From an uncultured Poribacteria bacterium (GTDB lineage Bacteria > Poribacteria > WGA-4E > WGA-3G), in the NCBI GenBank assembly GCA_951828385.1, contig OX639973.1, forward strand, positions 2,471,200 through 2,535,199: a stretch of DNA of 64,000 nt, in the 5' to 3' direction. Of the stretch, positions 57,039 through 63,193 are shown piece by piece. The notes beneath the pieces were generated by a model, which made no database searches, was not told where the DNA came from, and saw only the letters and a program-made list of their open reading frames with translations. Within the stretch, counting starts at the first letter, position 1. The number at the start of each line of letters is the position of its first letter. The position numbers and the translations under genes are program-made.

Positions 57039-58466
57039 TTATATTTCTTTCCGTTGAAATGAAACGTGCGCTGTCGCGAATAGCACAACGAAGAAGAGCA
57101 ACAACAGCATCACGTCTAACATTGCGCCTTTGAATGCATCTCCTAAACGCACCCGATCCTGAAATTTGGGAATGCTTTCAAAGGAGACGGGTTTATCGGA
57201 CATGCCTTCCCTAACAAATGGAACGTGTGGACTGTCCGGATCCGCGCGGTCGGCAGAAATAAGAAAATCGTTGAATGCATCGGCATAACGTTCGGCGTTT
57301 TTCAAGAAATTCAGATGTCTTTGGAACCCGGTTCCAGCAAGGGATTCAACGGCGTACTGCACAATTGCTGTCGGTGAGATACGATTGAACTCTCTGGCAA
57401 TCTGAATCTGGTTTATTTGTGCGTTTAAGTAGGCTTTCTGCAATCTCGCGCCCTCTCGCGCCTCCTCATTTAGGAACTCAGCCCAGAGCAGTGTTGCGGG
57501 TGTCGGTGGACGCTCACGGGTAGGTGCTTCATCTTCTAATCCGCGGGCTACATAGCGTTCTTGGAGTCCACTACGTCTGAAATATACTGGACTCGGCCCC
57601 CGACGGATTGATGGCTGGTTCAACCCACTCATAATTGTCCCAAGCATTGATGGCACGAGGATAACCCAAATTACCCATATCAGCAGCAGAATGACAAGGC
57701 TTGTTGAGGCGTTGTTAACAAGCACGGATATGAGAAACCCTAAGGCGATAAAGACAGCGATATATAGCAAACCCACAACGAAAATACCACCGATTCTGCT
57801 CCATTCTTCGGCATTGAGTTGGAGCGTTCCAGAGAGGTAAAGTAACAGGAGGTTAACCAACACACCGCTCATAAAAACAGCACCGAGACTGATAAGGCAG
57901 CTTAAGAATTTACCAGTGAGTACTGTCCGACGCGCAACAGCATTGGATAACGTCAATCGGAGGGTGCCATGTTCCACTTCACCAGAAATCGCGTCAAAAG
58001 TAAAGACGATCGCAAGAAAACTGAGGACATTGGAGATGATGAGGATCCAATCAATTTTTAAGAATACCGGGAAAATATCTTTCGCCTTTATGGATGGAAA
58101 TCCACTATATTTTAATCGCCAGATGCCGGAGACGTTATAGTGTGTTCCCCATCCCGCCCGCTTTCCTGATGCAAATTTCGGCAGATTATTTTCACTGCCG
58201 TGTGCACAGAAAGAGAGGGGTGAAGGTTTCTTGTAAAGTTCGCCGGGACCGTCTAAAACGTGTTTGTAGAGATTATTACTATTCTGTTCGAGTCTCGCTG
58301 AGTACGCTGAAACCTGCTGTCTATATTCTGCTTGTCGTGTTTTATATTCGTCAATGTGCCCGACGGCGTTGACGAGCATTAAAAAAACAATCAGCAGCAT
58401 CGCGAGTGCGAAACGGAGGCTATTGACTTGCTCAAACAATTCTCGTTTTACAATATGCCAAAGCAT
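57039..58466 (-). CDS. ABC-2 type permease, paralogue 2
   Basis: The 475-aa protein has an N-terminal span (about 18-38), a soluble extracytoplasmic domain, then a set of five or more spans starting near residue 140 (DWILIISNVLSFLAIVFTFDAISGE), and a final C-terminal span. The ISGEVEHGTLRL segment fits ABC-2 permeases. GGAGG lies in the spacer just upstream. It is paralogous to the next gene and the two probably form a heterodimer. No ATPase gene lies in the window. Confidence 0.82.
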   Translation of the reverse strand: MLWHIVKRELFEQVNSLRFALAMLLIVFLMLVNAVGHIDEYKTRQAEYRQQVSAYSARLEQNSNNLYKHVLDGPGELYKKPSPLSFCAHGSENNLPKFASGKRAGWGTHYNVSGIWRLKYSGFPSIKAKDIFPVFLKIDWILIISNVLSFLAIVFTFDAISGEVEHGTLRLTLSNAVARRTVLTGKFLSCLISLGAVFMSGVLVNLLLLYLSGTLQLNAEEWSRIGGIFVVGLLYIAVFIALGFLISVLVNNASTSLVILLLIWVIWVILVPSMLGTIMSGLNQPSIRRGPSPVYFRRSGLQERYVARGLEDEAPTRERPPTPATLLWAEFLNEEAREGARLQKAYLNAQINQIQIAREFNRISPTAIVQYAVESLAGTGFQRHLNFLKNAERYADAFNDFLISADRADPDSPHVPFVREGMSDKPVSFESIPKFQDRVRLGDAFKGAMLDVMLLLLFFVVLFATAHVSFQRKEI

Positions 58467-58467
58467 A

Positions 58468-59943
58468 TCAGACCTCCTGCCGACTGAAAACCGCGAAGAT
58501 AATCATAAGCAGCATCGGATTCAGAATGAAAAGTAGAAGTAGATCGCGGAGGGCGCGGTTACTGGCATCTTCAAGGACACTCGGCGGTTGATAAGAGAAT
58601 CGTGGGGCATCGTCCCATCGGACGGGTCCTTTATCACTCGCGAACCATTGGCGTGAACTGAACGCCTTTTTATCGTAGAAATAGTCCAATACCGTTTCCC
58701 TATACTGTCGCCCTGCTTTAAAAAAGTCTTGCATCCTCGCGAGACCTGTACCTGCCAATGCTTCTGTTGAGAGGTGATATAAACCTGCGGGCGAGAATCG
58801 GAGCGCGTTTCGGGCGATACTTGATTTACGAATATAGGTTTCGGAAAAGGTTGTCTCTCGTATTTGCCAGACTTTGTTAGCGGTCCGAATCCGTCCAGCT
58901 GTTAGTTCTTGGAAATAGGCTTTAACCGTTGGGACATGGATTTCCGATTCATCTGGAATGAACGTAATATTTTTCTTTAGATGCGTGTAACTCGAACTTC
59001 CACCCCCTGATTTGCTGCCCTTTAGTAGTGGCGAGTCCTCAAACGGATCCCCAGGTGCTTCTTCAGTCCGATAGAATTGTTCCAAGATTTGGTCAATTGC
59101 TTGATCCGCTTGTTTGACTCTCTCCTCTGTCTGAATGAAGCGGTTGACGAGGAATAGACTCACGTTCGGATAGAGCAGTGTCAACACCACCCAAATAAAC
59201 ATTGAGACGATTAATGATGTTGCCGGGCGGTGAATCATGCTGGAGATAAACAACCCGATGAGATAGAACGTAGAGGTATAGATGACTGTTGTGAGAAAGA
59301 TACCGCCAATCCGGAGGAAATCGTCGGCACCATAGTGGATGGCATTAGATTGAAGTTGGAGCAGCAGTGCCAACAGAAAACTCATTAGCAGCGGTAGTGT
59401 AAGGCATAGCATAGCACCTAAATACTTTGACATTACAACCAAGCCGCGTCCAACGGGATTGACAAGAATTAGACGTAACGTACCGTTCTCGCGGTCGCCA
59501 GCGATTGCATCGTACGCAAAAACCAGAGCAAGGAGACTGAAAAGGATTTGGAAAATAGATACCAGATCTATATCGGCGAGCAGGTATCGGAAAGGATTGC
59601 TGAAACCTGTATTACGGCTGACATCACCCCATAAAAAGGGGATTTCTCCAATCTTGATTTGGAGGGAGTTCTTCGCGCGCTTGTCAAGTCCTTGATTAAA
59701 GAGACTTAATGGGTTAGGTGCTCTGTCAAGGGACGGCATGAAAGATGAATACGTTTTTCCACTAAAGTTTCCTTCTTGGTGTCTCTGGAAATCCTCATTG
59801 TAACTCGCGAGTCTCCGCTCATAATTGTCCGTTAAGACGATGCTCCCCGCAAGCACAAGTGACATGGACGCAATCACCGCAACCAAAAAGCGAAACGTCA
59901 TTAGATTCATTAAGAGTTCATGTCGAATCAGTGTCCAAAGCAT
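58468..59943 (-). CDS. ABC-2 type permease, paralogue 1
   Basis: The 491-aa protein shares architecture with its neighbour: N-terminal span, large loop, then a set of spans with VFAYDAIAGDRENGTLRLIL, which is the same motif as in the paralogue. A C-terminal span ends the protein. It is one base from the next gene, so the two are co-translated. Such pairs often move lipids, peptides or signals and need an ATPase that is not seen here. Confidence 0.82.
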   Translation of the reverse strand: MLWTLIRHELLMNLMTFRFLVAVIASMSLVLAGSIVLTDNYERRLASYNEDFQRHQEGNFSGKTYSSFMPSLDRAPNPLSLFNQGLDKRAKNSLQIKIGEIPFLWGDVSRNTGFSNPFRYLLADIDLVSIFQILFSLLALVFAYDAIAGDRENGTLRLILVNPVGRGLVVMSKYLGAMLCLTLPLLMSFLLALLLQLQSNAIHYGADDFLRIGGIFLTTVIYTSTFYLIGLFISSMIHRPATSLIVSMFIWVVLTLLYPNVSLFLVNRFIQTEERVKQADQAIDQILEQFYRTEEAPGDPFEDSPLLKGSKSGGGSSSYTHLKKNITFIPDESEIHVPTVKAYFQELTAGRIRTANKVWQIRETTFSETYIRKSSIARNALRFSPAGLYHLSTEALAGTGLARMQDFFKAGRQYRETVLDYFYDKKAFSSRQWFASDKGPVRWDDAPRFSYQPPSVLEDASNRALRDLLLLFILNPMLLMIIFAVFSRQEV

Positions 59944-60094: not shown

Positions 60095-61504
60095 ATGGAA
60101 ACGGAAACGCGGACCTCCTCAGCGATGCACGCTCCTGGTGCAATACTCCTGATCTCCTGCTACGAGCTTGGACACCGACCTGCCGGGGTTACGCGCCCAC
60201 TCCGCGCGCTTGAAACGGCAGGATTCGCACCGGATGCAATTGATATTGCAGTCGAACCGTTGGATGCTGAAAAGGTTGGTCGCGCACAGTTTATTGGTAT
60301 CTCTGTCCCGATGCATACGGCATTGCGGCTCGGTGTTTATCTCTTGCCCCGCATTCGAGAAATCAATCCGAGTGTCTCTATATGTATGTACGGACTTTAT
60401 GCGACACTCAACGCCGACTATCTGCTATCACACGGTGTCGATTTTTGTATCGCTAATACAGCATCAACAGTACTCGTTGAGTTGGTGCAATCTCTTACGA
60501 AGGGAGAACCGCTTCGGAAACAGGACATTGGCTTTCATACTGTGAAACTGCCACCGTTAGAGGTGTATGCCCAGTTTGAGGATAATGGCGAAACCCGAAC
60601 CGTCGGGTATACGGAGACAACGCACGGATGCAAACACCTCTGCACGCACTGTCCTATACCGCCGGTTTATAACGGCAAATTTTTTGTTGTCCAACCCGAT
60701 ACCGTACTTGCTGAAATACAGGAGCAGGTGGCGCAAGGTGCAACGCATATTACGTTCGGAGATCCCGATTTCCTCAACGGACCGATGCACGGGCTTCGCA
60801 TCCTCCGTGAAATGCATGCAGCGTATCCGAACCTGACCTTCGATTTTACGACAAAGATTGAGCATATTCTGAAGCATAGAAAACATTTCCCGGAATTCGC
60901 GCAACTCGGATGTCGGTTTATTATCTCCGCTGTGGAATCGTTGAGTGCGACGGTATTAACGATTTTGGAGAAACATCACACACGCGCCGATGTCGAAACT
61001 GCAATTGACATCGTTCACAGTGGTGGCATCGCGCTACGCCCGACATGGGTGCCGTTTACACCGTGGACAACCTTAGATAACTATCTTGAAATCTTCCAGT
61101 TTGTTGATACGCATCGTCTTGTGTATCACGTGGATCCCGTGCAGTATGCGGTTCGGTTGTTAATTCCGCCGGGTTCATATCTGCTCAACCGCCCTGAGAC
61201 GAAAGCACTTTCACTTACGCTTGATGAAGCCGCTTTCAGTTATACATGGACACACCCGGACGCACGAATGGATGAACTTTATAAAACGATCAACGCACTT
61301 GTTGAAAATGATGCGCGTGCCGGTGTGGATACCTTAGAGACCTTTTATCGGATATGGTCACTCGCTGCGGATATGCAGGGTAGCAGGCACACTCCGTTGG
61401 GTTTCCGTAGCAAAGAGGGACATTTACCTGCCCCTCGAATCACCGAAGCGTGGTTCTGCTGAGCGGAACCCACCGAAGGGCAGTTTGCCCCCATATATGT
61501 TTAA
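60095..61504 (+). CDS. Radical SAM protein with CUAEP tail, probable selenoprotein
   Basis: A conventional reading ends at TGA 61460-61462, after WFC. The next codons are GCG GAA CCC, so reading TGA as selenocysteine gives the tail CUAEP and then about ten residues to TAA at 61502. That tail defines a known radical SAM family (CUAEP/CCAEP-tail), to which the rest fits: LLISCYELG, AYGLYATLN-type, the cluster motif CKHLCTHC (Cys 179, 183, 186 from the chosen start) and ITFGDPDFLNGP. The product is about 469 aa. ATG 60095 is used; ATG 60125 is possible too. A stem-loop fitting a bacterial SECIS lies just after the TGA. Confidence 0.85.
61463..61500 (+). promoter_or_regulatory. Candidate bacterial SECIS element
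   Basis: GGGC-AGTTT-GCCC at 61478-61490 forms a small stem-loop. The apical loop starts 19 bases after the UGA, has five bases and holds a G at its second position; these three points match the published bacterial SECIS rules as I know them. Confidence 0.6.
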
Positions 61505-62383: not shown

Positions 62384-63193
62384 ATGCAAAAGGTTGCTGT
62401 GATTACGGGTGCAGCGAGCGGCATCGGGAGAGGATTGGCAGAACGGTTCGCAGCGGAGAGTATGAAAGTCGTTCTCGCTGACGTTGAAGTGGAAGCATTA
62501 GCCGAACTTGAGACGGACTTAAAATCTAAGGGCGCGGACGTTCTTACTGTCAAGACGGATGTCTCAAATGCTGCCGAGGTCGAAAACCTTGCAGTGCAGA
62601 CACTGGACACTTTTGGTGCGGTACATATTCTTTGTAATAATGCCGGTGTTGTCTGTAGTCGTCCGATCTGGGAACACACGCTCGCCGATTGGGAGTGGGT
62701 TTTAGGTGTCAACCTGTGGGGTGTCATCCACGGCATCCGAGCGTTTGTGCCGCGTATGCTCACACAAGGGGACGCGTGTCATATTGTGAATACGGCTTCT
62801 ATCTTGGGTTTGGTGGGAGGTAGTGGCGAAGGTATCTATAAAGTGAGCAAACACGGGGTCGTGGTGCTTTCCGAGACGCTCGCTGATGAATTGGCGCAAA
62901 AAGAGGCGAATATTCAGGTACATGTGCTGTGTCCCGGTTGGGTGCGCACAGGGATTCTGGAATCCTCCCGAAATCGTCCGGACACATTGCAAAATCCAAA
63001 AATGGAAACACCGCCACGTCAGGAAACTATCGGTGGTTCCCGGAATACCCGCGCCGAGATGGAAGCGGGGATGTCGCCTGCCGAGGTTGCGGAGCATGTC
63101 TATAACGCGATCCAGACGGGGACCTTCTATATTCACACACATCCTGAACACAAGGCGTGGGTTCGTGAACGTATGAAGCGGATTCTTGAGTAA
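62384..63193 (+). CDS. Short-chain dehydrogenase/reductase
   Basis: This is a 269-aa SDR with TGAASGIG, NNAG, catalytic Ser in NTASILG and YKVSK. The LADVEVEAL segment gives an acidic residue at the end of the second strand, favouring NAD. GGAGA supports the start. The HTHPEHKAWVRERM end is common in this SDR subgroup. The substrate is unknown. Confidence 0.87.
   Translation: MQKVAVITGAASGIGRGLAERFAAESMKVVLADVEVEALAELETDLKSKGADVLTVKTDVSNAAEVENLAVQTLDTFGAVHILCNNAGVVCSRPIWEHTLADWEWVLGVNLWGVIHGIRAFVPRMLTQGDACHIVNTASILGLVGGSGEGIYKVSKHGVVVLSETLADELAQKEANIQVHVLCPGWVRTGILESSRNRPDTLQNPKMETPPRQETIGGSRNTRAEMEAGMSPAEVAEHVYNAIQTGTFYIHTHPEHKAWVRERMKRILE

What the first reader, a model, noticed from the sequence alone, without database searches (positions are those of the whole stretch)
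61451..61504. In-frame UGA makes a CUAEP tail: a probable selenoprotein
The annotated end of the radical SAM protein is WFC followed by TGA, but the next three codons spell Ala-Glu-Pro and the frame stays open to a TAA 42 bases after the TGA. CUAEP is the tail that gives the CUAEP/CCAEP-tail radical SAM family its name. A stem-loop with a G in the loop sits at the right distance for a bacterial SECIS. Standard gene finders will truncate this protein by 14 residues and miss the selenocysteine.
Basis: partly seen in the sequence, partly recalled or inferred. Interest (0 to 1): 0.85.

Follow-up and report, generated by a model that had tools for sequence, protein, structure and literature searches.

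The report
Selenocysteine-tailed radical SAM enzyme in Poribacteria
A gene in a Poribacteria genome reads an apparent stop codon as the rare amino acid selenocysteine, giving a radical-chemistry enzyme a Cys-selenocysteine tail; the family was already named, but its RNA signal, its wide spread and a likely partner enzyme are documented here.

Summary
The UGA at 61460-61462 is almost certainly read as selenocysteine. The extended protein (WFC-U-AEPTEGQFAPIYV) matches NCBIfam NF040546 "CUAEP/CCAEP-tail radical SAM (seleno)protein" at 615 bits (cut-off 500). The genome has selA, selB, selC (anticodon UCA) and selD. Every poribacterial homologue that reaches the tail has UGA there; many in Acidobacteriota and Chloroflexota have UGA, others TGC/TGT, always before AEP. 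RefSeq truncates the Thermomicrobium roseum protein at the same UGA. The stem-loop at 61478-61490 is a bSECIS: its four core pairs form in 38 of 40 distinct poribacterial UGA genes (about 6 expected with random synonymous codons), 33 of 42 UGA genes elsewhere, but 7 of 61 Cys-codon genes, with compensatory changes and an invariant loop G. The Sec/Cys codon switched at least 8 times. The nearest characterised relative is ArsL (arsinothricin biosynthesis), which also has a C-terminal Cys-Cys pair and often lies beside an ATP-grasp ligase. Arsenic genes are absent near CUAEP genes, bar one weak hit. I infer that the Cys-Sec tail serves an ArsL-like group transfer to another acceptor. New member of a known, uncharacterised family.

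The parts
60125..61504 (+). CUAEP-tail radical SAM selenoprotein gene, read through the in-frame UGA (459 residues incl. Sec446). Start inferred: ATG 60125, or ATG 60095 upstream in frame; the table-11 ORF opens with TTG 60059.
   Evidence: NF040546 614.8 bits, E 9e-185, residues 7-455 to model positions 1-467 of 468; translation; tblastn relatives in Poribacteria cover residues 1-459
60629..60652 (+). radical SAM CxxxCxxC motif (Cys169, Cys173, Cys176), [4Fe-4S]/SAM site
   Evidence: Pfam Radical_SAM 43.1 bits; invariant in 58-sequence alignment and in ArsL
61451..61471 (+). C-terminal W-F-C-U-A-E-P motif (W443 to P449)
   Evidence: invariant in alignment (U read as C)
61460..61462 (+). UGA codon read as selenocysteine (Sec446)
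   Evidence: sel genes
61478..61490 (+). bacterial SECIS hairpin GGGCA-GUU-UGCCC; loop G at 61483; core pairs 61478-61490, 61479-61489, 61480-61488, 61481-61487, plus 61482-61486 closing the loop
   Evidence: fold; conservation and compensatory changes
61502..61504 (+). true stop codon TAA
61557..62243 (+). DUF169 (COG2043) protein; downstream co-directional neighbour, conserved in Poribacteria; functional link unproven
   Evidence: Pfam PF02596 102 bits; downstream, same strand, in 41 UGA loci
62384..63193 (+). short-chain dehydrogenase, second co-directional downstream neighbour in Poribacteria; functional link unproven
   Evidence: Pfam adh_short; 41 UGA loci

Best explanation
SHOWN: the gene encodes a B12-binding-fold/radical SAM protein of family NF040546 whose penultimate-motif UGA is, on comparative evidence, decoded as selenocysteine by SelB, tRNA-Sec(UCA) and the SECIS hairpin 15 nt downstream of it, giving a C-terminal Cys445-Sec446 pair. 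INFERRED: the flexible tail carries the Cys-Sec (Cys-Cys in other lineages) pair into the active site, where it binds or reduces the acceptor, while the [4Fe-4S]/SAM centre delivers a SAM-derived radical group, most likely 3-amino-3-carboxypropyl as in ArsL, to make a non-canonical amino acid that is then ligated by an ATP-grasp L-amino-acid ligase. Sec would speed a step that Cys also performs. My probabilities: Sec decoding 0.97; Cys-Sec pair functions as a redox or acceptor-binding pair in catalysis 0.7; ArsL-like 3-amino-3-carboxypropyl transfer 0.35; arsenic as acceptor 0.12.
For: Sec: NF040546 match through the UGA; complete sel set; 48 of 85 genomes of the phylum have a hit over cut-off, each listed one with one in-frame TGA; tails all WFC-U-AEP in Poribacteria; codons after the UGA vary synonymously, e.g. 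GCG/GCA, GAA/GAG, CCN, ACN; stem kept in 38/40 versus 6.35 expected with random synonymous codons; covariation score 0.372 and 0.487, 0 of 500 shuffles as high in either set; 7/61 Cys-codon genes keep the stem; UGA/TGY switches at least 8 times; selA in 70 of 71 family-bearing genomes tested. Mechanism: the only invariant Cys in family plus ArsL are CxxxCxxC and the C-terminal pair; ArsL chemistry from PMC8552651; ATP-grasp/LAL_C2 ligase beside 57 of 172 loci, 47 within 300 nt, homologous to the ATP-grasp genes of ArsL clusters; a full-length homologue in this genome, unlinked.
Against: No protein-level proof of Sec. Hairpin energy alone is unremarkable. 7 of 42 non-poribacterial UGA genes form only 2 of the 4 core pairs in this register. 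No arsenic genes beside CUAEP genes except one weak arsM-like hit. ATP-grasp gene is not adjacent in Poribacteria. The tail beyond residue 450 is low-confidence in the model, and its distance to the cluster could not be measured.
Confidence: 0.9

Rival explanations
1. UGA is a genuine stop and the AEP codons are an untranslated relic or chance continuation.
For: UGA is used as a stop elsewhere in the window (6 of 45 long frames end in TGA); the table-11 ORF ends here.
Against: AEPT.GQ coding is conserved across Poribacteria, Acidobacteriota, Chloroflexota with synonymous variation; relatives replace UGA by TGC/TGT and keep AEP; complete sel genes.
Confidence: 0.02
2. UGA is read through by ordinary suppression or a reassigned code (e.g. 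UGA = Trp), not as Sec.
For: Read-through as such would also preserve the downstream codons.
Against: The replacement in relatives is always Cys, never Trp or Gly; tRNA-Sec(UCA), SelA and SelB present; stem conserved in UGA genes but not in Cys-codon genes.
Confidence: 0.01
3. The Cys-Sec tail is not catalytic chemistry on a substrate but an internal reductant or metal-loading/repair device for the enzyme (like the C-terminal redox tail of thioredoxin reductase).
For: Vicinal Cys-Sec at a flexible C-terminus; NifU-domain (Fe-S scaffold) genes beside 56 loci.
Against: ArsL, a relative with known chemistry, has a vicinal Cys-Cys pair at the same alignment position, which fits an acceptor-handling role at least as well.
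Confidence: 0.25
4. The protein is an ArsL orthologue that makes arsinothricin or another organoarsenical.
For: NF040542 match 320 bits; shared tail pair and ATP-grasp neighbour.
Against: Below the ArsL cut-off of 450 bits; lacks RCCLKC; ArsL and this family separate with 100% support; no arsQ, arsN, arsR or arsenic transporter hits and one weak arsM hit beside CUAEP/CCAEP genes.
Confidence: 0.1

Closest known systems
NCBIfam NF040546, CUAEP/CCAEP-tail radical SAM (seleno)protein
   Same: Full-length match over the curated cut-off, model runs through the Sec position; tail CUAEP
   Different: Nothing essential; one more poribacterial member. The family's function is not known; no paper in the library names it and the 2026 review of prokaryotic selenoproteins does not mention CUAEP
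ArsL, arsinothricin biosynthesis radical SAM protein (NF040542; Burkholderia gladioli ArsL, PMC8552651)
   Same: 35-37% identity over about 380 residues; CxxxCxxC; vicinal Cys-Cys near the C-terminus aligned with Cys-Sec; ATP-grasp genes nearby in several clusters
   Different: Tail RCCLKC not CUAEP and no 50-residue extension before it; ArsL lies in ars clusters, CUAEP genes do not; score below the ArsL cut-off
B12-binding-fold radical SAM enzymes AprD4, TsrM, OxsB (PDB 6fd2, 6wte, 5ul3)
   Same: Closest solved folds, Foldseek E 1e-15 to 1e-14, TM about 0.63
   Different: Only 13-15% identity; none is a selenoprotein with this tail
Other Cys-Sec or C-terminal Sec selenoproteins of prokaryotes (TrsS radical SAM, SaoC, MbdU; PMC13188914)
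   Same: Bacterial Sec decoded by bSECIS; several proposed to bind metals or metalloids
   Different: Different families by name and model; not compared by sequence here

Membership tests
NF040546 CUAEP/CCAEP-tail radical SAM (seleno)protein | score above curated cut-off of 500 bits over the whole protein | tested here: met
   614.8 bits, model 1-467 of 468
NF040546 CUAEP/CCAEP-tail radical SAM (seleno)protein | C-terminal C-[UC]-A-E-P motif | tested here: met
   CUAEP at 61457-61471
Bacterial selenoprotein | in-frame UGA aligned with Cys in homologues | tested here: met
   TGC/TGT in Actinomycetota, part of Acidobacteriota and Chloroflexota
Bacterial selenoprotein | selA, selB, selC, selD in the genome | tested here: met
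Bacterial selenoprotein | bSECIS hairpin, loop G in first two positions, 16-37 nt from UGA, MFE at or below -7.5 | tested here: met
   spacing 20 nt, loop GUU, -9.9 kcal/mol for the 42 nt; covariation
Bacterial selenoprotein | Sec detected in the protein | not testable with these tools
   needs mass spectrometry or 75Se
ArsL (NF040542) | score above curated cut-off of 450 bits | tested here: not met
   320 bits
ArsL (NF040542) | RCCLKC C-terminal tail | tested here: not met
   tail is WFCUAEP; only the vicinal pair is shared
ArsL (NF040542) | arsenic gene cluster (arsQ, arsM, ars operon) | tested here: not met
   no ars genes around the window gene; one weak arsM hit among all CUAEP/CCAEP loci held
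ArsL (NF040542) | transfer of 3-amino-3-carboxypropyl from SAM to As(III) | not testable with these tools
   needs enzyme assay
Radical SAM superfamily | CxxxCxxC cluster motif and fold | tested here: met
   PF04055 43.1 bits; Cys169/173/176; AF2 model pLDDT 90.8 matching radical SAM structures

The most novel reading that the evidence does not exclude
CUAEP/CCAEP radical SAM enzymes and a neighbouring ATP-grasp L-amino-acid ligase form an uncharacterised pathway, parallel to but distinct from arsinothricin biosynthesis, in which a C-terminal Cys-Sec pair presents a non-arsenic acceptor to a SAM-derived 3-amino-3-carboxypropyl radical and the resulting amino acid is then peptide-bonded.
Probability: 0.25. 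Interest if true: 0.75.

Novelty: new member of a known kind. Interest (0 to 1): 0.4.

Why it matters
It confirms a selenoprotein that standard annotation truncates (a named isolate, Thermomicrobium roseum, is truncated this way in RefSeq), gives its SECIS element cross-phylum covariation support, and shows repeated Sec/Cys exchange at one catalytic-looking position, mostly inside Sec-using organisms. The shared tail pair and ATP-grasp neighbour connect an uncharacterised, widespread family to the ArsL reaction, which makes a concrete biochemical test possible.

Tried and rejected
Hairpin folding energy as evidence: not significant by itself (z -0.95), so not relied on. Solved relative by sequence: only MiaB at E about 1e-3. 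Conserved operon in Poribacteria: DUF169 and SDR follow in one group of Poribacteria but not in its deeper branches, so treated as weak. Arsenic function by neighbourhood: ars-cluster proteins searched against all held loci, essentially absent. selA absence explaining Cys forms: only in part; 4 of 9 sampled Cys-type genomes of mixed phyla lack selA, but Cys-type Chloroflexota and Acidobacteriota tested have it. Literature on the family: no paper with CUAEP or, as far as ranked results show, NF040546, none joining Poribacteria and selenoproteins. T. roseum tRNA-Sec: not on the plasmid record; chromosome not held. The model's coordinates were not exposed, so the distance from the tail to the cluster was not measured.

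Full report
OBSERVATION. The sequence is as described. In the frame of the radical SAM gene W-F-C (61451-61459) is followed by TGA (61460-61462), then GCG GAA CCC and an open frame to TAA at 61502-61504. With TGA read as U the protein ends ...RITEAWFCUAEPTEGQFAPIYV, 459 residues from ATG 60125. The table-11 ORF ends at the TGA, so a standard gene finder loses 14 residues.

FAMILY. The read-through protein matches NCBIfam NF040546, 'CUAEP/CCAEP-tail radical SAM (seleno)protein', with 614.8 bits against a cut-off of 500, aligned to model position 467 of 468. The second family is ArsL (NF040542), 320 bits, below its cut-off of 450. Pfam gives Radical_SAM and a sub-threshold B12-binding domain. 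The AlphaFold2 model has mean pLDDT 90.8 and its closest solved folds are the B12-binding-fold radical SAM enzymes AprD4, TsrM and OxsB.

SELENOCYSTEINE MACHINERY. The window lies in a 6.66 Mb single-contig genome whose relatives are Poribacteria. It has selA (603.5 bits), selB (355 bits), selC (76.4 bits, next to selB, anticodon UCA) and selD (362.6 bits), all over their cut-offs. SelD itself appears to be a selenoprotein (VKCAGUASKL), so Sec decoding is in use in this genome.

HOMOLOGUES. In 85 genomes of the phylum, 48 have a match over the cut-off and every listed one contains exactly one TGA. All poribacterial loci that reach the tail read WFC-U-AEP. Actinomycetota and several others read WFC-C-AEP with TGC or TGT. 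In Chloroflexota 98 of 400 genomes and in Acidobacteriota 65 of 396 carry the family, with TGA in many; of 59 tails read from the best of these loci plus Thermomicrobium, 42 are U and 17 are C, and all have AEP. RefSeq's T. roseum protein WP_012643191.1 ends at the TGA after WFC, though the frame continues UAEPLEDPSG with a GGACCC-GUC-GGGUCC hairpin whose loop G is again nucleotide 21 after the UGA. selA is over cut-off in 70 of 71 family-bearing genomes tested from Poribacteria, Chloroflexota and Acidobacteriota, Cys-type genomes included; the one without is a fragmented assembly (730 contigs). In a separate mixed sample of nine Cys-type genomes, four have no selA.

PROTEIN-LEVEL SELECTION BEYOND THE UGA. 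Across 63 poribacterial UGA rows (duplicates included) the codons after UGA vary synonymously: GCG 45/GCA 18, GAA 42/GAG 21, all four CCN, all four ACN. This is the mark of translated sequence.

SECIS. The hairpin 61478-61490 meets the published bSECIS limits: 5 bp, loop GUU, 20 nt from UGA; the 42 nt fold to -9.9 kcal/mol. The energy is ordinary for such composition (z -0.95). Comparison decides. The four core pairs all form in 38 of 40 distinct poribacterial sequences, against 6.35 expected if the same amino acids used random synonymous codons weighted by this gene's usage; in 33 of 42 UGA genes of other phyla; and in 7 of 61 Cys-codon genes. The loop G is present in all 82 UGA genes. Covariation scores are 0.372 for Poribacteria and 0.487 for a 32-sequence mixed set I picked from the UGA tails, with 0 of 500 shuffles as high in either and slid registers much lower. 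Pair 18-26 occurs as G-C, U-A and C-G, and pair 17-27 as G-C and A-U. The encoded residues change with the stem (GQFA, GQLD, DQLD, DP.G), so the stem is kept while the protein varies. In L164 a TAG ends the protein four residues after Sec, yet the core stem beyond it is kept. Caveat: these controls do not remove relatedness, but the Cys-codon relatives act as a matched negative set.

EVOLUTION. On a 136-row maximum-likelihood tree built without the tail the Sec/Cys state needs 11 changes, at least 8 forced by strongly supported branches (quick method, some long branches). Sec and Cys are thus repeatedly exchanged at this position.

FUNCTION. In the family and ArsL together the only invariant cysteines are CxxxCxxC (169, 173, 176) and the C-terminal pair 445-446, which the alignment places with the Cys-Cys of ArsL's RCCLKC tail. 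[quoted passage not shown] Beside 57 of 172 CUAEP/CCAEP loci, 47 of them within 300 nt, lies an ATP-grasp protein with the L-amino-acid ligase C-terminal domain; it is homologous to the ATP-grasp genes of ArsL plasmid clusters. A full-length homologue exists, unlinked, in this genome. NifU-domain genes lie near 56 loci. The locus counts include some near-duplicate loci fetched by two tools. Ars-cluster proteins (arsQ, arsR, arsenic transporter, arsN1) have no hits beside the family and arsM one weak hit. The best reading is therefore an ArsL-like radical group transfer in which the Cys-Sec tail handles the acceptor, arsenic being unlikely, followed by ligation of the amino acid product. Sec decoding is strongly supported (0.97); the chemistry is inference (0.35).

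NOVELTY. The family and its Sec form are already named by NCBI; this is a new member. No paper in the library names CUAEP, and the 2026 review of prokaryotic selenoproteins does not mention it. The SECIS covariation, the count of Sec/Cys switches, the ATP-grasp link and the T. roseum truncation are additions made here; I cannot exclude that they appear in literature not held.

Noticed in passing
L012 (own genome, contig 1, 1330118-1331041): selD has its own in-frame TGA near the start (VKCAGUASKL), so SelD is itself an apparent selenoprotein.
   Followed up: partly
L134 4944-6380 (NC_011961.1, Thermomicrobium roseum): RefSeq protein WP_012643191.1 ends at the Sec UGA; the tail UAEP and a SECIS-like hairpin follow.
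   Followed up: yes
L164 (a Chloroflexota genome): WFC-UGA-AEPA-TAG: the stop comes before the hairpin, whose core pairs are nevertheless kept, so this SECIS lies mostly outside the coding sequence.
   Followed up: partly
57 of 172 family loci, e.g. L101 3578-4849; own genome 1285866-1287125 (L200): ATP-grasp L-amino-acid ligase gene beside CUAEP/CCAEP genes of both Sec and Cys type; unlinked in this genome.
   Followed up: partly
56 family loci, e.g. L091: NifU-domain gene near CUAEP/CCAEP genes, usually divergent in Cys-type loci and co-directional in Sec-type loci.
   Followed up: partly
L187, L188, L198: L187 has an internal TAG within an otherwise full-length frame; L188 and L198 lack the tail motif because the held contig ends there.
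   Followed up: no
window 57039-59943, minus strand: Two tandem, related multi-spanning membrane proteins (475 and 491 aa; they fall in one sequence cluster) that look like ABC-2-type permeases; present beside the gene in many Poribacteria.
   Followed up: no
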